In this document: positions 3,861-14,890 of the stretch, piece after piece | Layout: every line of letters starts with the position of its first letter | How positions within the stretch are numbered: the stretch's first letter is position 1 | From: a virus | DNA: 23,505 nt | Strand: one strand, 5' to 3' | Virus record (IMG/VR): IMGVR_UViG_3300022074_005634 | Location: 1 to 23,505 of that record | Program-made: the position numbers and the translations under genes | Notes under the pieces: model-generated | Told to the model about the DNA's origin: nothing | The model's database searches: none | Seen by the model: the letters and a program-made list of their open reading frames with translations, nothing else

Positions 3861-4708
3861 ACAAGCTAGTAATAGGCACAGACCTTGCTGCCTTAATCTA
3901 CGCCTACCTAAACAACTGCACGTTCATTTTTAAAGAGATAGTCCACCCCACTCCATTCGAGTTCCTGCCGCTGGACTTCCCTTTAAATCTGTTTAATCAT
4001 GACAAAATAGAAATAGAGATGACCAGCCTTGATGGAGTGGTCAAGTTCGGCACACCAAAGATAGAGTTGTGGAACAGGCTTGTCTTTGTTATGTCCTCGG
4101 CTGGTCTCCTACCCTTTGGTCTCAAAGAGGTAACCGTTAGAGAAGAGGACGACTTGGTGGTGGTCAAAACCAAATCACGCAACTACTATTACGAAGCAGC
4201 CGAGGTCATAAAAATAAAGAATACCTTCCACAGATACACAGCGTTTGATTGGATCAACGTTAGGTCTTGCGGTGCAAACCATCTACAGTATGTAAGCACC
4301 GACGACAAGTTCGTATCAGAAGTGTTCTTCTACCCTTCAGGGCGACACGGAGCCAAACAAGGCGACAACGACATTGCAATAATCTCAAGCCTATCTGAAA
4401 CACAACTACAACTATTTGATTATAGCGAGACGATGACTAGGATAAGGGTCAAGGTTTTGCTGCACGAGTTGGGCATCAAGGGACCAAGGAACGGCAAGAA
4501 CCCGACCTACCCTAGATCGCCAGAGAGATACAAGTACGCGCCTATAAAACTAGAGCACGATCATAGGGAGATAAGAAGAACTAAAACCAACAACAGTGAA
4601 CTAGAAATAGTACAAGACTTCTTACAGGAGCAAAAAGAACTATCAGAGGATACTTATCTGTATAAGTTTAACAGCAGAGTTTCGCAGAGGAGCCTGTTGA
4701 GAAAATGA
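3833..4708 (+). CDS. Hypothetical protein of 291 residues
   Basis: I do not recognise this protein. It opens with a basic stretch, then VDKLVIGTDLAALIYAYLN, which resembles the first strand and helix of a Rossmann nucleotide-binding fold but lacks the full GxGxxG. The middle is strand-rich (for example DLVVVKTKSRNYYYEAAEVIK). The last 70 residues are charged, with the basic patch REIRRTKT followed by a helical tail. Its 5' end overlaps the secreted-protein gene by 28 bases, and its stop overlaps the cysteine synthase start by four bases (ATGA). It is therefore firmly part of the operon. The product is soluble, with no membrane segment seen. An FAD/NAD-dependent or sugar-modifying enzyme is conceivable given the nucleotidyltransferase-fold neighbour two genes on, but this is only a guess. 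Confidence 0.65.
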   Translation: MRKRHHYQVDKLVIGTDLAALIYAYLNNCTFIFKEIVHPTPFEFLPLDFPLNLFNHDKIEIEMTSLDGVVKFGTPKIELWNRLVFVMSSAGLLPFGLKEVTVREEDDLVVVKTKSRNYYYEAAEVIKIKNTFHRYTAFDWINVRSCGANHLQYVSTDDKFVSEVFFYPSGRHGAKQGDNDIAIISSLSETQLQLFDYSETMTRIRVKVLLHELGIKGPRNGKNPTYPRSPERYKYAPIKLEHDHREIRRTKTNNSELEIVQDFLQEQKELSEDTYLYKFNSRVSQRSLLRK

Positions 4709-5826
4709 TTAGAGAAGGAATAAGGGCTACAGGCTCTGGTGGGAAAGGCGGAGCACCCGCAGCACCAGTAACTAGCCAGAAGGTCACACCAGCAGATGGC
4801 TGTGCGACAACAGGAGATGAGAACAACAATGGCGTCGAGGTGCGTGATGCATTAGGTGCCGATACTAACATACCCAGCGAAGCCAATTGCTATCAGAATA
4901 TGAGTTCTGAACAGGTTTTGCAAATCGCTGGTAAATCTAAAATAGGTGGGACAAAGACAATGGACTTAGGTAGTTTGGTGGGGAGCACACCCTTAATAAA
5001 ACTTGGAGATAAGTTGTATGCGAAGTTTGAAACATACAATCCAAGTGGCAGCATCAAAGATAGAATAGGATATTATATTCTTTCCAAGGCAGAAGAGAGG
5101 GGAGACCTCAAGCCGGGAGATACAATCGTAGAAGCCACCAGCGGCAACACGGGCATCGCTGTATCTATGTTTGGCGCTCACAAAGGATACAAGGTCATCA
5201 TTGTTATGCCTTGCAATATGAGCGAAGAGCGCAAGCAGATGATGCGTATGTTTGGCGCAGAGGTGATTGAAGTAGAGGCAGGAGATTTCGACAGGGCTAT
5301 TGCAATGCGAGATCACATCTGCAAAGAGGACGGCTTTTTCAACTTCAATCAGTTTCACAACCCAGATAACATCGCCTGTCACTACGAGACGACGGGTGTC
5401 GAGATCCTAGACCAGACGCGAGGGCTGGAGATCTCTGCTTTTATCGACGGAACAGGCACGGGGGGAACCTTGATGGGCGTAACTGAAAGGCTAAAAGAAC
5501 GTTACCCCAGAGTCCAGACAGTAGCAGTAGAGCCAGCAGAGTCTCCAGTTATGAGCGGTGGTGAGGCAGGGCTACACGGCATCCAAGGAATTGGAGACGG
5601 ATCAAAGTTTTTAGTTGACTTAAAAAAAGTAGATGATATAATGGTAATCTCAACGGAGGATGCTAAGTCTAGAATGAAACAACTAATAGGAACAGGCTTG
5701 TTGGTTGGTATAAGTTCTGGCGCAAATGTGTTGGCATCTGAAAGATGGATTGAACAAAACAATCCTGATGGTATTGTAGTCACAATACTGTGCGACAGGG
5801 GCGAACGTTACCTTTCATGCATGTAA
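4705..5826 (+). CDS. cysK: Cysteine synthase-like PLP enzyme with N-terminal extension
   Basis: Residues from about 86 onward match O-acetylserine sulfhydrylase, which makes cysteine from O-acetylserine and sulfide using pyridoxal phosphate. Visible motifs are LVGSTPLIKL, the PLP lysine K118 in PSGSIKDRIG, the substrate loop TSGNTGIAVS, the PLP-phosphate loop GTGTGGTLMG, VAVEPAESPVM, IQGIGDG and the final ISSGAN...CDRGERYLS. The protein stops just after GERYLS, so the last roughly 15-20 residues of bacterial CysK are missing. The first 85 residues are an extra, low-complexity Gly/Ala-rich segment. The ATGA overlap with the upstream gene supports the ATG at 4705. A second start at 4960 (M86) has AGGTGGG nine bases upstream and would give a normal-length core, so both forms may be made. 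Threonine-synthase-fold relatives such as cystathionine beta-synthase are less likely. Confidence 0.88.
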   Translation: MIREGIRATGSGGKGGAPAAPVTSQKVTPADGCATTGDENNNGVEVRDALGADTNIPSEANCYQNMSSEQVLQIAGKSKIGGTKTMDLGSLVGSTPLIKLGDKLYAKFETYNPSGSIKDRIGYYILSKAEERGDLKPGDTIVEATSGNTGIAVSMFGAHKGYKVIIVMPCNMSEERKQMMRMFGAEVIEVEAGDFDRAIAMRDHICKEDGFFNFNQFHNPDNIACHYETTGVEILDQTRGLEISAFIDGTGTGGTLMGVTERLKERYPRVQTVAVEPAESPVMSGGEAGLHGIQGIGDGSKFLVDLKKVDDIMVISTEDAKSRMKQLIGTGLLVGISSGANVLASERWIEQNNPDGIVVTILCDRGERYLSCM

Positions 5827-9600: not shown

Positions 9601-10116
9601 TGCAGGTCAGGTGCTCTCAAATCTCTACAGGACGACAGGTTTACGGGGGCTAAACACTTCTGGTCTTGTGTCGCAGTAGATAGACCAAGGAAAGAGAGCG
9701 CGTTGCTGGGCAACATTGAGACCTACGCAGATGAAGGTGACTTCTCAACAGAGGAGAGGATTCAATATCTAACCGACTTGACTGGTATGTTCCCTATCAA
9801 CCTAGTGATGAAAGGCGATACACTAAGCCAACTGGTAGATAATGGTGTGCCTGCTATCTCTGAGTATGACCCTGACTTGAAGTTGGTGTGGTTTATTCCT
9901 CGCAAGGTCACAATTAAAAAGACTAAGAACGACAAGGCATACTATGTCTTGGAAGTCATCGACGACAACAATGTAATCACTACGATTAGGTGTTGGGGCG
10001 TGAAGTTAGAGAAGGACCGCGTTCAACTCAACAAGCCTTACATGGCTAAACTAGATTACAACGATCAATGGGGTTTCTCTACTAGATCTATGTACCACAA
10101 CTTCAGAGTGCTATGA
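6682..10116 (+). CDS. dnaE: DNA polymerase III alpha subunit, DnaE type, with PHP domain
   Basis: A 1144-residue C-family replicative polymerase. The N-terminal PHP domain (about 1-280) shows H12/H14 (GLHAHS), D46-H47 (LTDHGN), E77 (GVEAYF), H130 (HLILLAQN), C181 (ASACMGG) and D261/H263 (ADSHY). The palm carries the catalytic aspartates D472/D474 in YPDIDYDVSS and D637 in IKFDVLGL. GPGRGSAAGSLVAYALGI (about 430-447) and SIYRPGPLG are further DnaE signatures. A helix-hairpin-helix (IKGLGGSAM, about 930-940) and an OB-fold (VTIKKTKNDKAYYVLEV, about 1075-1091) follow. The length is close to bacterial DnaE (about 1160). The gene overlaps both neighbours (14 bases upstream, ATGA downstream). It should be the phage replicase, working with the helicase at position 1. 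No separate DnaQ exonuclease is seen in the window. Confidence 0.95.
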   Translation: MKKSSIPFVGLHAHSVAGSPFDALGYPQDHMDYAYENGGEALALTDHGNMNGMAYQVLHAKKMKAEGKNFKPIFGVEAYFIPSLDVWNEERDRAKTDKKRASELKDSTTMSVENEGETKRSKSILNQRSHLILLAQNQTGLNNIFAMISKSNSDKYFFRYPRVDYEVLREHSEGVIAASACMGGVYAANFWKHWDGEKEIVTDPEACTDAFRETTRNMIDIFGDRWYGELQWHTDKKQHMINKLVIQMHKEFGIKLISTADSHYPTPTAWKDRELYKRLGFLGKGKPSWLSDELPESVAEVGYELYPKNGDQMWESYKHYTELVGEDYDDDLVMDSITETHNIAFNRIEDFMPDNEVRLPSFVVPDGYTADAALETTSLESLNKLGLLTNPEYKARLEEELSVISDRGFSKYFLTMKAIADTATENQLAGPGRGSAAGSLVAYALGITQVDPIKYGLQFARFLRKDATDYPDIDYDVSSPMELKEIMQEKWGHTTVVPISNFNTLQLKSLVKDISKLYDIPFTEANAVTSRMVAEATPKAKAKHGIKAGMYIPTFEELMEFSDSLQDYLQRYPHIKDHIKVIYGQVRSTSRHAGGVVVGEDLDKHMPLIRSGGVIQTPWSEGQNVRHLEPLGFIKFDVLGLASLRMIETAVRHILKRHHNNPDPTFDDVRAYYDEHLHPEKIDLSDQKVYKNIFHKGKWAGIFQFTESGAQNFCKQAKPKNIIDISAITSIYRPGPLGANVDKKYVKAKENPRGIDYINKYVKDVTKETYGFLIFQEQIASLAHELGEGVSLDEGNLLRKLLTKKGTGKGAQEKEKIRKKFVSGCLNKKMTEDQAVELWNNFEYFSGYGFNKSHAVSYSILSFQCAWLLNYYPAEWMAAFLDKEPDSKKEKAIGIAKSMGFGIEPLNINTSGKVWEISDDGKTLIQPLTSIKGLGGSAMDQILMHRPFNTIEEFLFHKEVTYSKLNKKALDVLCRSGALKSLQDDRFTGAKHFWSCVAVDRPRKESALLGNIETYADEGDFSTEERIQYLTDLTGMFPINLVMKGDTLSQLVDNGVPAISEYDPDLKLVWFIPRKVTIKKTKNDKAYYVLEVIDDNNVITTIRCWGVKLEKDRVQLNKPYMAKLDYNDQWGFSTRSMYHNFRVL

Positions 10117-11027
10117 ACCCGCAAGATAGATTTAAAGACTACCAAGGCGACAAGTGCTGGCAAGCCTACATCTCTGAAGTCAATCGGGGCGAGGACTTGC
10201 TGGCTGCTGGCTTAACAGAGGAAGAGGCATCAATGTTGCGAATTGATGACTTTGTGTTTGAGTATGTTGATAAGGAGAATAAGCAACTATGTAAAGAGGT
10301 AAAAGAGTTTATTATGCGACACGAGTGGCTAGCTAAACTCCCCAACCGACCGACACATAGGTTTACAGCGAGGCTTAAGAAAAATGGAATCTTGGCAGGC
10401 ACTATCATTATGGCAACCCCAAATGCGTTTTCTAACCTTTTGGGCAAAGAAAACAAAGACAAAGAAAAGCTAATCTCTCGTGGTGCCTGTATCTCTTGGG
10501 GTCCAAAGAACCTAGGCTCTTGGTTGATCATGTCTTCAGTCCGTTGGATGACTGAGAACACAGACTTCCGATACTTCACAGCCTACTCTGACCCAGAGGC
10601 TAAGGAGCTAGGAACAATCTACCAAGCCTGTAACTTCCAATACCTTGGGCAGACAAGCGGCACAGCCAAGCAATACCTCGACCCAGACTACCCAGAGAAA
10701 GGTTGGTTCTCCGATAGAGAGTTCAGAAAGAAGTCTAAGTACCAAAGATATGCTGAAGCAATCGGCATAGACAAGCAGACTTGGAAAGGCTGGATGAAGA
10801 AGTATTCTCCAGACTGGACCGCTGTCCCGCCAGACATCAAGGTCAAGATCAAGGCAGAAGAAAAGAGATATCGGGATAGTTGCAAGTCCAGAGCAGTCCC
10901 TGCAAAGCATAAGTATGTTTGTATTCTCGGTCGAACTCAGGGCGAGACAAAGTATTACAGGCGTATGTTTAAGAAACTAAACCCTAAGAAGGCAAATCTG
11001 CCTTATCCACAGGAGCGAGGCAAATGA
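10113..11027 (+). CDS. Mom-like GNAT-fold protein, candidate DNA adenine modification enzyme
   Basis: A 304-residue protein that resembles the phage proteins annotated as Mom-like. By family, Mu Mom has a GNAT-type fold and converts adenine to a carbamoylmethyl form that blocks many restriction enzymes. Visible here are a GNAT-like core with GTIIMATPNAFS (about 96-107), ISRGACISWGPKNLGSWLIM (about 123-142), YFTAYSDPEAKELGTIYQAC and NFQYLGQTSGTA. After a basic linker comes a C-terminal KHKYVCILG...LPYPQER segment, which is characteristic of that group. The assignment is from remembered family patterns, not a search. A different N-acetyltransferase activity is the main alternative. ATGA overlaps join it to the polymerase upstream and to the membrane protein downstream. 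It sits next to the restriction-modification-like genes. Confidence 0.6.
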   Translation: MNPQDRFKDYQGDKCWQAYISEVNRGEDLLAAGLTEEEASMLRIDDFVFEYVDKENKQLCKEVKEFIMRHEWLAKLPNRPTHRFTARLKKNGILAGTIIMATPNAFSNLLGKENKDKEKLISRGACISWGPKNLGSWLIMSSVRWMTENTDFRYFTAYSDPEAKELGTIYQACNFQYLGQTSGTAKQYLDPDYPEKGWFSDREFRKKSKYQRYAEAIGIDKQTWKGWMKKYSPDWTAVPPDIKVKIKAEEKRYRDSCKSRAVPAKHKYVCILGRTQGETKYYRRMFKKLNPKKANLPYPQERGK

Positions 11028-11371
11028 ATAAAGCACTACTGCTAGGGACACTGCTATTCCTAACAGGGCAGACTCTCGTGTGGTTCCAGACCAACTCACA
11101 ACTGGTGTGGGAATGGTGGAAAGATAAGCCGATTGTGTCAGCACTAGTGTTTTCTCTACCCATTGCCTTGGCATTCTGGTATGGTACAAAGTATATCTAC
11201 GAAGCAACGGGAGAGCTTTGGACTGCTAGGTATGTTGCCTTTGGGGTCTCCTATATCACATTCCCATTCCTAACTCAGTATTTTCTAGGCGAGTCTATGT
11301 TCACAGCAAAGACGTTGGTATGCACTGGGCTGGCAATTATTATTGTTTGCATTCAATTTTTTTGGAAATAA
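11024..11371 (+). CDS. Small four-helix membrane protein
   Basis: A 115-residue hydrophobic protein with about four predicted membrane segments: residues 3-20 (ALLLGTLLFLTGQTLVWF), 37-54 (IVSALVFSLPIALAFWYG), 69-85 (YVAFGVSYITFPFLTQYF) and 92-113 (TAKTLVCTGLAIIIVCIQFF). The size, four helices and the closing LGES...GLAIIIV pattern recall half of a drug/metabolite transporter (EamA or SMR type), but no family signature is certain. It could also be a holin-like or superinfection-exclusion protein. ATGA overlap ties it to the Mom-like gene. A promoter for the next unit begins directly after its stop. Confidence 0.6.
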   Translation: MNKALLLGTLLFLTGQTLVWFQTNSQLVWEWWKDKPIVSALVFSLPIALAFWYGTKYIYEATGELWTARYVAFGVSYITFPFLTQYFLGESMFTAKTLVCTGLAIIIVCIQFFWK

Positions 11372-11374
11372 TGC

Positions 11375-11403
11375 TTGACTTCTACTTCGACCTCCCTTAT
11401 AAT
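11375..11403 (+). promoter_or_regulatory. sigma70-like promoter for the restriction-modification-like unit
   Basis: TTGACT (11375-11380) and TATAAT (11398-11403) are 17 bp apart, in the only gap (61 bases) before the nuclease-like gene. The surrounding bases closely resemble those around the promoter at 13915. A GGAG ribosome site follows about ten bases before the ATG at 11433. Confidence 0.8.
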
Positions 11404-11432
11404 CGTATCATAATTTAAAACAGGAGAGTGAT

Positions 11433-11933
11433 ATGACCGCCAAAGAGAAATACATTCAACTATACCAAGAGATGGCTGACCTTTGCGAACAAGAAGGGTG
11501 GGGCGACCCATTCTCATACGCTCGGTCCAAGGAGATTTACGCAGCTTGTGTTCTGGGACATAGGATGCCCGGTCCCAGCGATTACTCTGGGGCAGATGCA
11601 ATTAATGAACACGGCGAGGAAGTTGAATACAAGTCTACAATCGGAAAGTCTGTTAAAGGCTCCTACACGGGTATCTCTGTTCAGCCTACTTGGGAAGAAC
11701 AAGATCGATATCTTCGAGAGGAGAAGCTAGCTAAGTACCCGGAGCACTTCTACAATCGATTCGATGGAGGTAAACTCGTTGAATCTTGGAAATTAACTGG
11801 TCGACAGGTTTACGACATTCTTCTACCAAAGCTACGCAAGAAGTACCCAACCATCCTCCAGAAGAAAGACCCACGTCTGTCAGCCGATATTACTACTGGC
11901 GACCTCAAACAACATGGAACAAGGGTGCTATAA
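11433..11933 (+). CDS. Putative PD-(D/E)XK restriction endonuclease
   Basis: A 166-residue protein paired with a DNA methyltransferase whose start codon directly follows its stop codon. The region YSGADAINEHGEEVEYKST (residues 51-69) has the D55...E65-x-K67 spacing of a PD-(D/E)XK nuclease core: an acidic residue at the start of one strand, then E-x-K on the next. The later part, SWKLTGRQVYDILLPKLRKK (119-137), is helical and basic and could contact DNA. The size is small for a Type II enzyme but within range. The family and recognition site are not identified. The alternatives are an orphan phage nuclease used for host DNA breakdown, or a structural look-alike. The ATG at 11433 has a CAGGAGAG ribosome site. 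The gene is driven by the promoter at 11375, so it is probably made together with the methyltransferase. Confidence 0.5.
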   Translation: MTAKEKYIQLYQEMADLCEQEGWGDPFSYARSKEIYAACVLGHRMPGPSDYSGADAINEHGEEVEYKSTIGKSVKGSYTGISVQPTWEEQDRYLREEKLAKYPEHFYNRFDGGKLVESWKLTGRQVYDILLPKLRKKYPTILQKKDPRLSADITTGDLKQHGTRVL

Positions 11934-12821
11934 TTGAAAGTGCTAGACAACGTATTCGTATTTAATGAAGAAGGGATAGAGTTCTTGTCTAAGATACAAG
12001 ACAACTCGATTGACCTTATCTTGACTGACCCTCCCTACATCACATCTAGAGAGACTGGTATGGACAAGTGGGTCGACCACGTTGCAGGGCAAGATAAGGA
12101 AGGTGCAAAGAACATTAAGTCTGAAGAGGAATGGCTGTCTTACAAGACAGAGGGCGAATGGGATATGTGGATGAGTAACGGAAACATACCTGCCGAGAAG
12201 AGAGGCAAGAAGCTTCAACAGTTGAAGAAAGATTATCTCAAGTACGGCAGCATCTACGGCAAGAAGTTTGCTGTCACCACAGACTATGGTGAGTGGGACA
12301 GTGAGTTCACTATGGAGAAGCTACATCTATTCATGAAGCATTTCTATCGAATCCTAAAGGATGGTGGAAGCTGTATTATCTTTTTTGATATTTGGAAGCT
12401 GTCTTATCTGAAAGAGATGATGGAGGAAGAGAAGTTCAAGCAGCCTAGATTCATTGAGTGGATTAAGACTAACCCTCAACCAATCAACAGCAGTCGTAAC
12501 TATCTGACAAACTGTAGAGAGATTGCATTGACTGGCGTAAAGAAAGGAAGCAGCACATTCAACAGCAAGTATGATAATGGTATCTACAAGTATCCTTTGC
12601 AAGGAGGCAAGTGGAGGTTTCATCCGACTCAAAAGAGTCTGCCATTGTTTGAAGACTTGATTTTGAAGCACTCTAACGAGGGAGACACTGTATTGGATTG
12701 TTTCCTTGGTTCAGGCACAACTGCTGTAGCAGCAGCAAAGAACAATAGAAAGTTTGTTGGTTGTGAAAAAAGTGAAGAATATTTTGAAAAAAGTGTTGAC
12801 AGATTGAAAAATCAGTGTTAG
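11934..12821 (+). CDS. Beta-class DNA methyltransferase, probably N6-adenine
   Basis: A 295-residue SAM-dependent methyltransferase with motif order IV, target-recognition region, X, I. Motif IV is SIDLILTDPPY with the catalytic DPPY at 32-35. The motif X-like HPTQKSLPLFEDLI lies at about 230-243. Motif I, VLDCFLGSGTTAVAAA, is near 253-268, followed by FVGCEKSEEYF. This order defines the beta class, and DPPY favours N6-adenine, although N4-cytosine cannot be excluded. The central region (about 40-220) should choose the target site. The start is a TTG directly after the stop of the nuclease-like gene, with AAGGGTG upstream, so translation is coupled. A GTG two codons later is an alternative start. 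By context it protects phage DNA from the partner nuclease or from host restriction. Confidence 0.88.
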   Translation: MKVLDNVFVFNEEGIEFLSKIQDNSIDLILTDPPYITSRETGMDKWVDHVAGQDKEGAKNIKSEEEWLSYKTEGEWDMWMSNGNIPAEKRGKKLQQLKKDYLKYGSIYGKKFAVTTDYGEWDSEFTMEKLHLFMKHFYRILKDGGSCIIFFDIWKLSYLKEMMEEEKFKQPRFIEWIKTNPQPINSSRNYLTNCREIALTGVKKGSSTFNSKYDNGIYKYPLQGGKWRFHPTQKSLPLFEDLILKHSNEGDTVLDCFLGSGTTAVAAAKNNRKFVGCEKSEEYFEKSVDRLKNQC

Positions 12822-12824
12822 AGT
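12796..12824 (+). promoter_or_regulatory. Possible promoter inside the end of the methyltransferase gene
   Basis: A perfect -35 box TTGACA (12796-12801) is 17 bp from TAGAGT (12819-12824), a 4/6 match to TATAAT that is preceded by TGT as in extended -10 promoters. It would give the unknown gene at 12853 its own transcript. The -10 box is weak, so this is a candidate only. Confidence 0.4.
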
Positions 12825-12852
12825 AACGAAGTAATTAATTGAGGAGATTAAG

Positions 12853-13911
12853 ATGAACGAAGAACAATATAACTATATGATTAAGACTTACGGTCAGCCA
12901 TTTCTAGATAGTATAGAAGAGATTGACCCCGGAGATGTGAAGTCATTTAACCAGAGAGCTAGAGTTAACGGCAATCAGCAAAACAATATTAGTAGGTACA
13001 CGCAGCAATTTTTGAATGGGACGGAGCAAAAAATCCCCGTATCTCTTCGAGGCAGTGAGTGTATGGAGGGTACGAGTCGCGCAAAATCCAAACAACAAGC
13101 ACATAGGGCTGACAAAAAGCAAAGACTTAAAGCCACAAATTATATGCACGAGGTGCTTGGGTGGACTGACGAAGAGTGGGAGGAATTCCAAGACAACGCT
13201 AACGATCATGCTGGTAATTCTCCCGCTACGGACGATGATATGGAAGCAGCAGTAGAGAGGCGGATACAGAACCATCGCATGGACACCATTGTCAAAAATG
13301 TGACTGGGAAAATTTTGAACCCAAGAAAAAAGCCGGAGGATTTGGAAGAATATGTAGAAGCCGCTGGTCGATATATGAAAGAAAACGTTTTTCCCAAGTC
13401 GCCTCGAACAAACGTTTGGTTTAAAAATAGAGTTAGAGACTTTCTTAAGAACGATGTTAACAAAGTTAGCAGCCGAAAAACATATACGCCAGTTGATAAT
13501 GCAAAATTCTTTCGTGATTCAGGTCATTCTAAGTGGAGTGGTCATTCAACTGCTACAGTTGACAAAAATGAGCACCTGATTGTTATCAACTCCAAAAGCA
13601 AATTTGATCCAAACATCAGCGGAGCGCTGACTCACCAAGTAAGAGAGTATCCCCACATTAAGCAAACCGTCGCAATCAGTTTGAGCAACTTGACTGGTTT
13701 ATCAGATTCCGATATTGACAAGATAAGGCAAGATATTGTAACTCTGGTAAAACGAACTGTCGCAATGTTTAAAAACCCACCCAATGTTCAGGTAGTTTCT
13801 TTCCATCAGAAAGCGTCGGATTCTCACGGTGTTACGTTGCTATGGGATTCTAAAGAAGAGCAACAAGAGGAGGACGTAAAGCGTATGATTTCTGCACTAC
13901 AAGGTAAATAA
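12853..13911 (+). CDS. Hypothetical protein of 352 residues downstream of the R-M-like pair
   Basis: No family is recognised. The protein is hydrophilic and has no signal or membrane segment. Residues 1-60 are Gln/Asn-rich. Residues 70-200 are charged and probably helical, with an acidic patch (TDEEWEEFQDNAND). The C-terminal half is more regular: DSGHSKWSGHSTATV, a strand EHLIVINSKS, then a helix-strand series TQ..VAISLSNLTGLSDSDIDKIRQDIV and VQVVSFHQKASDSHGVTLLWD. The ATG follows a strong GAGGAG site. Codon use looks less uniform than in its neighbours, with more AAA and AAT, which may point to separate acquisition, but this was not counted. It lies between the methyltransferase and the UvsE promoter, so it may be a third member of that cassette (specificity, control or anti-host factor) or an unrelated insertion. 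Confidence 0.6.
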   Translation: MNEEQYNYMIKTYGQPFLDSIEEIDPGDVKSFNQRARVNGNQQNNISRYTQQFLNGTEQKIPVSLRGSECMEGTSRAKSKQQAHRADKKQRLKATNYMHEVLGWTDEEWEEFQDNANDHAGNSPATDDDMEAAVERRIQNHRMDTIVKNVTGKILNPRKKPEDLEEYVEAAGRYMKENVFPKSPRTNVWFKNRVRDFLKNDVNKVSSRKTYTPVDNAKFFRDSGHSKWSGHSTATVDKNEHLIVINSKSKFDPNISGALTHQVREYPHIKQTVAISLSNLTGLSDSDIDKIRQDIVTLVKRTVAMFKNPPNVQVVSFHQKASDSHGVTLLWDSKEEQQEEDVKRMISALQGK

Positions 13912-13914
13912 TAC

Positions 13915-13943
13915 TTGACTTCCATTTAATCCTACCTTATAAT
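13915..13943 (+). promoter_or_regulatory. sigma70-like promoter for the uvsE operon
   Basis: TTGACT (13915-13920) and TATAAT (13938-13943) are 17 bp apart, in the 61-base gap before the UvsE gene. The flanking bases match those of the promoter at 11375 at most positions, including CTTGACTTC, CCTTATAATC and CATAA downstream. It probably drives the tightly packed genes up to 18361. Confidence 0.8.
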
Positions 13944-13972
13944 CAGACCATAACTTTTACAGAGGAGATAGT

Positions 13973-14890
13973 GTGAATAATATCGGATATGCTTGTATCA
14001 ATATGGATTTGTCTGAACAGCCCAAGTCTAAGCGCGTGACTACCAATAGATCTATGATTAAACGCACCTTCCAAGAGAAGGGCGTTGCATACGCTTCTGA
14101 ACTGGCGTTGGCAAACTGCCGAGACCTTCTCACTATCTTGAAGTGGAACGAGGCACACGGGTTCAGCTTCTTTCGTTTATCGTCAGAACTGTTCCCGTGG
14201 GCTTCCGAGTATAAGATGTCTGACCTACCAGACTTTGATGACATCTGCTTGGCTCTACAAGAGGCTGGTGACTTCATCGAGGACCATGGTCATCGTATCA
14301 CATCCCACCCCGGACCATTCAACAAGCTGACTTCTCCAAGAGAAGAGGTAATCCAAAACACTATTCGTGACTTGGAGATCCACGGCGAGGTCTTTGATAT
14401 GCTTGGCTTGTCCAGAACACCATACAACAAACTAAACATTCACGTCGGGGCTCACTATAATGATAAGCCCATGGCTCTCGGAAACTTCTGTAAGAATTTT
14501 CACAGACTATCAGATGCAGTCAAGTCTCGCCTTACAGTAGAGAACGATGACAAGGCTTCTCTCTACTCAACCAAGGAACTGTATGATAGTGTATACCAAG
14601 AGATTGGTATTCCCATCGTACACGACCAGCATCACCACCTATTCTGTACTGGCGGTCTAGACCAAGAGGAAGCAATGCTTACTGCTGCTATGACTTGGGG
14701 TGACATTACACCAGTCATCCATTACAGTGAAAGCCGACCAGAAGAGCAGAACGATCCCAAGATCAAACCACAGGCTCACTCTGATTATGTCTACAAGAAG
14801 ATTGATACATTCGGTTTGGATGTAGATGTAATGGTAGAAGCCAAAGCCAAGGAACGAGCAGTCCAGCGATACAAGGAGTTGTGGGGATGA
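13973..14890 (+). CDS. uvsE: UV-damage DNA endonuclease (UvsE/UVDE family)
   Basis: A 305-residue TIM-barrel endonuclease that nicks DNA 5' of UV photoproducts in alternative excision repair. Visible family signatures are IGYACINMDL at the N-terminus (compare LGYVCINL), NCRDLLTILKWNEAHGFSFFRLSS, HRITSHPGPFNKL, LNIHVGAHYNDK, LTVENDDKASLY, the His cluster IPIVHDQHHHLF that supplies metal ligands, and a late VIHYSESR. The length is typical of UvsE. The start is a GTG after a GAGGAG site, fixed by the position of the first barrel strand. It is the first gene of the operon behind the 13915 promoter. The presence of this repair enzyme suggests exposure of virions or infected hosts to sunlight. Its stop codon overlaps the next gene (ATGA). 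Confidence 0.93.
   Translation: MNNIGYACINMDLSEQPKSKRVTTNRSMIKRTFQEKGVAYASELALANCRDLLTILKWNEAHGFSFFRLSSELFPWASEYKMSDLPDFDDICLALQEAGDFIEDHGHRITSHPGPFNKLTSPREEVIQNTIRDLEIHGEVFDMLGLSRTPYNKLNIHVGAHYNDKPMALGNFCKNFHRLSDAVKSRLTVENDDKASLYSTKELYDSVYQEIGIPIVHDQHHHLFCTGGLDQEEAMLTAAMTWGDITPVIHYSESRPEEQNDPKIKPQAHSDYVYKKIDTFGLDVDVMVEAKAKERAVQRYKELWG

What the first reader, a model, noticed from the sequence alone, without database searches (positions are those of the whole stretch)
10113..13911. DNA modification and restriction island in a phage: Mom-like enzyme, nuclease and methyltransferase pair, plus an unknown partner
Next to the replicase gene lie a Mom-like DNA-modifying candidate, a membrane protein, a PD-(D/E)XK-type nuclease candidate (D55, E65, K67), a beta-class adenine methyltransferase and a 352-residue unknown. 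The nuclease and methyltransferase are adjacent end to start behind a dedicated promoter. Complete restriction pairs are uncommon in lytic phages, where lone methyltransferases are usual. Such a set could destroy host or rival phage DNA while the phage's own DNA is methylated and also modified by Mom.
Basis: partly seen in the sequence, partly recalled or inferred. Interest (0 to 1): 0.8.

Follow-up and report, generated by a model that had tools for sequence, protein, structure and literature searches.

The report
Phage-borne restriction-modification cassette, partly swappable
This phage carries a DNA-cutting enzyme related to the bacterial restriction enzyme PvuII, paired with a DNA methyltransferase that probably protects the phage's own DNA; related viruses keep the cutter but swap its partners, so phages appear to run restriction systems of their own.

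Summary
The 166-aa protein (NUC, 11433-11933) is a PvuII-like PD-(D/E)XK nuclease: its AlphaFold model has pLDDT 94, the 12 best PDB fold matches are all R.PvuII, and D55/E65/K67 align with PvuII D58/E68/K70. NUC is a virus family (406 viral-contig relatives, 1 in genome contigs). In 39 of 45 NUC clusters a DNA methyltransferase lies within two genes, of two unrelated kinds: the beta-class MT of this window, or a 176-aa NPPF-type enzyme (c11). At the window's own locus, close relatives carry NUC-MT-X, NUC-c11, no cassette, or a different nuclease-methyltransferase pair. The '352-residue unknown' (X) is a ParB/sulfiredoxin-fold protein keeping the GxxR nucleotide-binding motif. In relatives its place is taken by GHKL-ATPase, putative SF2-helicase or DUF262/HNH-like proteins. 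NUC and X are each optional; MT is the hub. Mom and the membrane protein are not part of the unit: they share the hot spot but come and go independently. Best reading: a phage-encoded Type II R-M cassette with a swappable third component, cutting unmethylated host or rival DNA. Activity, site and role are untested.

The parts
11360..11432 (+). Promoter-like region and RBS of the cassette (TTGACT 11375 - 17 nt - TATAAT 11403); left copy of a direct repeat
   Evidence: 45/74 identical without gaps to 13900-13973; single copy at the cassette-free locus of L093
11433..11933 (+). NUC: PvuII-like PD-(D/E)XK nuclease (PHROG 35715, 166 aa)
   Evidence: AF2 pLDDT 94.1; Foldseek top 12 PDB hits all R.PvuII, E 4e-6 to 5e-5, prob 1.00; profile hit 3ksk E 0.0027; 22 of 58 members hit PF09225 Endonuc-PvuII, best 3e-4
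11595..11633 (+). Catalytic triad codons D55, E65, K67 (PvuII D58, E68, K70)
   Evidence: invariant in 58 homologs; aligned with PvuII
11934..12821 (+). MT: beta-class N6_N4 DNA methyltransferase, DPPY at 12027-12038, motif I DCFLGSGTT at 12696-12722
   Evidence: searches (1.7e-33; PADLOC MTase_II 2e-48; PDB: DpnA-type adenine MTase 1.7e-31, CcrM), motifs invariant or nearly so in 30 homologs
12796..12824 (+). Promoter-like site before X (TTGACA-17-TAGAGT, 10 of 12)
   Evidence: consensus match only
12853..13911 (+). X: ParB/sulfiredoxin-fold protein (352 aa), GxxR at 13069-13080 (G73, R76), N117
   Evidence: profile A3: KorB 8.1e-5, sulfiredoxin 1.8e-4; G73, R76 and N117 invariant in 33 of 33; BFVD ParB/sulfiredoxin matches
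13900..13973 (+). Right copy of the promoter repeat, in front of UvdE
10113..11027 (+). Mom-like DNA modification enzyme: neighbour in the same hot spot, not a member of the cassette
   Evidence: present without the cassette in L091, L093, L094, L096
11024..11371 (+). Small membrane protein found with Mom; not a member of the cassette
   Evidence: no family; present without the cassette in L093 and L094

Best explanation
The stretch 11360-13911 is a mobile, phage-encoded Type II restriction-modification cassette. NUC is a PvuII-fold restriction endonuclease; MT methylates (most likely adenine in) the same site on phage DNA, so NUC can cut unmethylated DNA (host chromosome for nucleotide supply, or a co-infecting phage) without harming the phage. 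X, a ParB-fold nucleotide-binding protein, is an optional NTP-dependent third component, probably a second effector or motor/clamp protected by the same methylation. Shown here: fold, catalytic residues, MTase motifs, operon coupling, recurrent linkage, partner swap at one locus, empty site. Inferred: cleavage, common recognition site, protection, the biological role, and what X does.
For: NUC fold and triad equal PvuII. NUC lies within 2 genes of an MTase in 39 of 45 clusters at 90% identity, in 45 distinct flank pairs; the six exceptions are contig ends or fragments (L047, L013) or an MTase slightly further off (L042, L053, L070, P-SSM2). In reference phages, NUC and the ~80%-identical c11 occur in exactly the same 6 records. 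Gene joints of mostly -4 to +3 nt. Window NUC-MT-X against L004/L005 NUC-c11 between the same flanks; empty site in L093. Other REase_II + MTase pairs in the same slot: L106 3e-9, L137 1e-5, L165 2e-5, L124 0.0025. NUC dN/dS 0.02. No integrase (PF00589) in 12 long contigs, controls positive.
Against: No activity, recognition site or virion methylation is known. Sequence similarity of NUC to PvuII is weak on its own (E 0.0027 / 0.055); the case rests on fold plus triad. TM-scores of 0.56-0.60 mean a clearly divergent member. In P-SSM2 the MTase is 7 kb from NUC. MT occurs without NUC in 11 of 46 well-covered clusters. That MT methylates adenine is inferred from DPPY only.
Confidence: 0.77

Rival explanations
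1. NUC is a modification-dependent nuclease (BisI-like, Type IIM/IV) that cuts methylated or modified DNA of rivals; the adjacent MTases do something else.
For: The next fold matches after PvuII are Eco15I and NhoI, 5mC-dependent enzymes of the BisI family, whose closest canonical relative is PvuII (PMC11347163).
Against: PvuII matches are about 50-fold better in E-value and far better in TM-score; constant linkage to adenine-type MTases would be pointless or suicidal if NUC needed their mark.
Confidence: 0.08
2. X, not NUC, is the main partner of MT, and NUC is an accessory nuclease; the cassette is an NTP-dependent system (ParB/DUF262/GHKL/SF2 partner + MTase) distinct from Type II.
For: 8 of 46 well-covered MT clusters have X but no NUC (L097, L192, L194, L222, L226, L228, L233, L236); four unrelated protein types occupy the X place; a three-gene ATP-dependent R-M precedent exists (CglI/NgoAVII, PMC4267653).
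Against: 8 of 46 clusters have NUC and MT without X, and X was never seen in NUC-c11 cassettes, so NUC+MTase stands alone.
Confidence: 0.2
3. The MTases only shield phage DNA from host restriction; NUC is an unrelated recombination or repair nuclease.
For: Lone phage MTases are common and usually protective (established knowledge); a repair gene (UvdE) lies nearby.
Against: PvuII-branch fold, exact co-occurrence with c11 in reference phages, coupled operons across 45 flank contexts.
Confidence: 0.07
4. One reading: Mom, membrane protein, NUC, MT and the 352-aa protein act together, Mom adding a second layer of protection.
For: Adjacent and co-oriented in the window.
Against: Mom and TM are present without the cassette in L091, L093, L094, L096 and the cassette stands next to other genes elsewhere.
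Confidence: 0.05

Closest known systems
PvuII restriction endonuclease (PF09225)
   Same: Size (166 against 157 aa), fold, catalytic triad spacing D-x9-E-x-K, pairing with a beta-order N6_N4-type MTase
   Different: About 19% identity; PvuII's DNA-recognising D34 aligns with Y29 here, so another site is expected; no C-protein regulator seen; encoded by phages; partner MTase has DPPY rather than the N4C type
BisI family (Eco15I, NhoI)
   Same: Same branch of the PD-(D/E)XK fold
   Different: Weaker fold match; those enzymes need methylated cytosines
CglI / NgoAVII three-gene R-M systems
   Same: Nuclease + NTPase + MTase gene set
   Different: There an R-protein with a DEAD-family helicase/ATPase; here a PvuII-type nuclease with ParB, GHKL, SF2-like or DUF262/HNH-like partners, each optional
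MORC/paraMORC (GHKL) R-M systems and Mza (MzaB)
   Same: GHKL ATPase beside MTase and nuclease in some relatives (L010, L042)
   Different: GHKL is only one of several alternatives at that place
ParB-CTPase-fold phage proteins (PMC12704722)
   Same: ParB fold with GxxR P motif; phage versions often fused to N6_N4 MTases
   Different: Stand-alone gene beside MT with its own C-terminal domain; no ParA seen
Phage P1 EcoP1I and chlorovirus R-M enzymes (own knowledge)
   Same: Virus-encoded restriction with self-methylation
   Different: P1 carries a Type III system in a temperate phage; chloroviruses infect algae

Membership tests
PvuII-like restriction endonucleases | PvuII variant of the PD-(D/E)XK fold | tested here: met
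   Foldseek top 12 all PvuII, E 4e-6 to 5e-5, prob 1.00, model pLDDT 94
PvuII-like restriction endonucleases | Triad D-x9-E-x-K | tested here: met
   D55/E65/K67, invariant in 58, aligned with D58/E68/K70
PvuII-like restriction endonucleases | Match to the Pfam model PF09225 | tested here: inconclusive
   22 of 58 members match at E <= 1, best 3e-4; the window protein itself does not
PvuII-like restriction endonucleases | Cleavage of CAGCTG | not testable with these tools
   Recognition residue D34 of PvuII is not kept, so a different site is expected
Type II restriction-modification system | REase gene next to an MTase gene | tested here: met
   39 of 45 clusters; operon spacing
Type II restriction-modification system | REase and MTase recognise the same site; methylation blocks cleavage | not testable with these tools
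   Needs biochemistry or methylome data
N6_N4 beta-class DNA MTase | DPPY before the FxGxG motif, SAM-MTase fold | tested here: met
ParB-CTPase fold (X) | Sequence relation to ParB/sulfiredoxin N-domain | tested here: met
   Family profile hits KorB 8e-5, sulfiredoxin 2e-4; the window member alone is not recognised by Pfam
ParB-CTPase fold (X) | P motif GxxR | tested here: met
   33 of 33; R to A in this motif abolishes nucleotide binding in tested relatives (PMC12704722)
ParB-CTPase fold (X) | Nucleotide binding | not testable with these tools
   needs a binding assay
ParB-CTPase fold (X) | Solved-structure fold match | tested here: inconclusive
   Noc and ParB among the top PDB hits but E 0.05-0.1
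Mom (10113-11027) | Mom family profile | tested here: met
   PF25680 above cut-off, phrog_1384
Mom-R-M unit | Conserved linkage of the cassette with Mom | tested here: not met
BisI family (modification-dependent) | Dependence on methylated cytosine | not testable with these tools
   Fold match weaker than PvuII

The most novel reading that the evidence does not exclude
A modular virus-borne restriction system in which one conserved methyltransferase marks self DNA for two interchangeable kinds of effector, a PvuII-type nuclease and a nucleotide-driven partner taken from several folds (ParB-CTPase, GHKL, SF2, DUF262/HNH), carried in a swap site that other phages of the lineage fill with unrelated R-M pairs.
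Probability: 0.3. Interest if true: 0.85.

Novelty: new variant of a known kind. Interest (0 to 1): 0.66.

Why it matters
Complete restriction systems are regarded as bacterial weapons, with phages mostly carrying lone methyltransferases. A nuclease family found almost only in viruses, constantly linked to methyltransferases in marine phages including the isolates P-SSM2, P-SSM5 and P-TIM68, suggests that phages use restriction offensively. It turns the question of how such phages dismantle host DNA and shut out rivals into a direct test with cultured cyanophages, and offers a new PvuII-branch enzyme family with unknown specificities and an unexplained link to ParB-type nucleotide switches.

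Tried and rejected
The 'type II restriction endonuclease' beside Mom in Synechococcus phage DSL-LC03 is not a NUC homolog. Profile comparison of X with the GHKL and DUF262/HNH-like alternatives gave no relation, so these look like replacements, not divergent copies. A search for repeats of the exact long promoter pattern was badly phrased and uninformative, replaced. MED4-213, whose ParB/sulfiredoxin protein resembles X by fold, has it about 1 kb from a DNA methyltransferase but not adjacent. P-SSM7 gave no sequence-level X match. Literature searches found no description of this cassette; subscription papers are not covered. Prediction of the target site from site avoidance was considered and dropped, because self-methylation removes the pressure. 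The reading of L036-type X as DUF262/HNH and of L009-type as SF2 helicase rests on motifs seen by eye and weak Pfam hits.
Full report
What is there. The window is a whole IMG/VR fragment of 23,505 bp of a phage with DnaE-type polymerase, ribonucleotide reductase, UvdE, dUTPase, IMP dehydrogenase and GroEL (UvdE confirmed by family search, the others read from sequence or from relatives). All five ORFs of the finding are real and correctly placed.

The nuclease. The 166-aa protein has no meaningful Pfam, NCBIfam, PADLOC or PDB hit alone and is PHROG 35715 of unknown function (1.4e-58). Relatives were collected from viral contigs (406 in all, 80 kept), reference phages (6 records: P-SSM2, P-SSM5, P-TIM68) and bacterial/archaeal genomes (only 1, in a small MAG contig). 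A profile of 12 finds R.PvuII first in the PDB (E 0.0027), a profile of 58 again (0.055), and 22 of 58 members hit the Pfam PvuII model (best 3e-4). The AlphaFold model (58 sequences, pLDDT 94.1, pTM 0.89) has R.PvuII as all of its 12 best PDB matches (E 4e-6 to 5e-5, probability 1.00), followed by the BisI-family enzymes Eco15I and NhoI, whose closest canonical relative is PvuII (PMC11347163). D55/E65/K67 align with PvuII D58/E68/K70, same spacing, invariant in all relatives (PvuII numbering and roles from own knowledge). PvuII D34, which contacts DNA, corresponds to an invariant tyrosine, so another target is likely (inference). Weak alone, these lines together identify a PvuII-branch restriction nuclease.

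The methyltransferases. MT (11934-12821) is a beta-order N6_N4 MTase with intact DPPY and motif I. In other loci NUC is followed instead by c11, a 176-203 aa NPPF-type MTase (PHROG 799). With loci dereplicated at 90% NUC identity, 39 of 45 clusters have MT or c11 within two genes. The remaining six: L042 has MT three genes away behind a GHKL gene, L047 runs into the contig end, L013 is a fragment, L053 has an N6_N4 MTase about 4 kb away, L070 has c11 about 3 kb away, and P-SSM2 has c11 7 kb away. In the reference phage collection c11 at 80-90% identity occurs in exactly the six records that hold NUC. Cassettes lie in 45 distinct flank contexts, and genes are coupled with joints of mostly -4 to +3 nt.

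Same locus, different contents. The window, L003, L004, L005 and L088-L096 are close relatives. Between the same flanks the window has Mom-TM-NUC-MT-X, L004/L005 have NUC-c11, L093/L094 have Mom-TM directly followed by UvdE, L091 Mom and a 212-aa gene, and L092 a 228-aa protein with a PDFII...FKECKS motif plus an MTase. In the window the cassette lies between two copies of a promoter-like repeat (11360-11433 and 13900-13973, core TTGACTTC...TTATAATC), which is single at the empty site of L093: insertion or exchange through promoter repeats is the simplest inference. Other members of the DnaE lineage carry, in the same slot, further pairs of an N6_N4 MTase with a PADLOC REase_II match (L106 2.8e-9, L137 1.4e-5, L165 2.1e-5, L124 0.0025). 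So this is an R-M slot, and Mom and TM are separate tenants.

X. The 352-aa protein has divergent relatives (11-50% identity) between NUC and MT or after MT. A profile of 18 matches KorB (8.1e-5) and sulfiredoxin (1.8e-4) in its N-terminal half. G73, R76 (the GxxR P motif) and N117 are invariant in 33 of 33. In tested ParB-fold proteins R to A in this motif abolishes nucleotide binding, and phage versions are often fused to N6_N4 MTases (PMC12704722). The full model has modest confidence between domains (pTM 0.54), no significant PDB match, and viral ParB/sulfiredoxin matches. In some relatives the place of X is taken by a GHKL ATPase (HATPase_c_3 2e-18 and 3.5e-24; MzaB 6e-10), a 639-aa protein that looks like an SF2 helicase, or a protein with DUF262-like and HNH-like ends (the last two by motif only). 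Reciprocal analysis on MT: of 46 clusters with full context, 27 have NUC and X, 8 NUC only, 8 X only, 3 neither. MT is thus the hub; NUC and X are each optional. X was not seen in c11 cassettes.

Mechanism. Shown: fold, triad, MTase motifs, linkage, partner swap, empty site, purifying selection (NUC dN/dS 0.02 against L003). Inferred: NUC cuts unmethylated DNA at a site that MT or c11 methylates; the phage uses this to break down host DNA or exclude rivals, as T4 does with its own nucleases and modified cytosine (own knowledge); X adds an NTP-dependent step or a second effector. No integrase profile hit in 12 long contigs fits a lytic life but does not prove it.

Comparison and novelty. PvuII-type R-M is known; three-gene NTP-dependent R-M is known (CglI/NgoAVII, PMC4267653); GHKL R-M systems are known (PMC2292703); temperate P1 carries a Type III system (own knowledge). 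Not found described in the papers searched: a PvuII-branch family living in phages, partnered with two unrelated MTases and an exchangeable third component. I class it as a new variant of a known kind.

Noticed in passing
L086 2445-3615 (Synechococcus phage DSL-LC03, OR003938 68307-69477): A 185-aa protein annotated as type II restriction endonuclease overlaps a Mom-like gene by 38 bp; unrelated to NUC, possibly a nuclease whose protective mark is the Mom modification.
   Followed up: partly
L106 8507-9809, L137 12120-13689, L165 12456-13987, L124 11470-12973, L092 11318-12876: Five further nuclease-candidate plus N6_N4 methyltransferase pairs in the slot next to DnaE in related phages, four with PADLOC REase_II matches.
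   Followed up: partly
L097 5215-7242 and 7 other MT clusters (L192, L194, L222, L226, L228, L233, L236): MT with an X-type partner but without NUC; the function of this two-gene form is open.
   Followed up: no
window 4705-5826: A CysK-like cysteine synthase homolog in a phage genome, read from sequence only.
   Followed up: no
L006 and L008 4274-5260: Adenylosuccinate synthetase homologs (PF00709; PHROG 1211, labelled 2-aminooxy adenylosuccinate synthetase) just upstream of NUC in related phages, which could hint at a modified adenine in their DNA.
   Followed up: no
L084 3958-5163: Two c11 methyltransferase genes in tandem after NUC.
   Followed up: no
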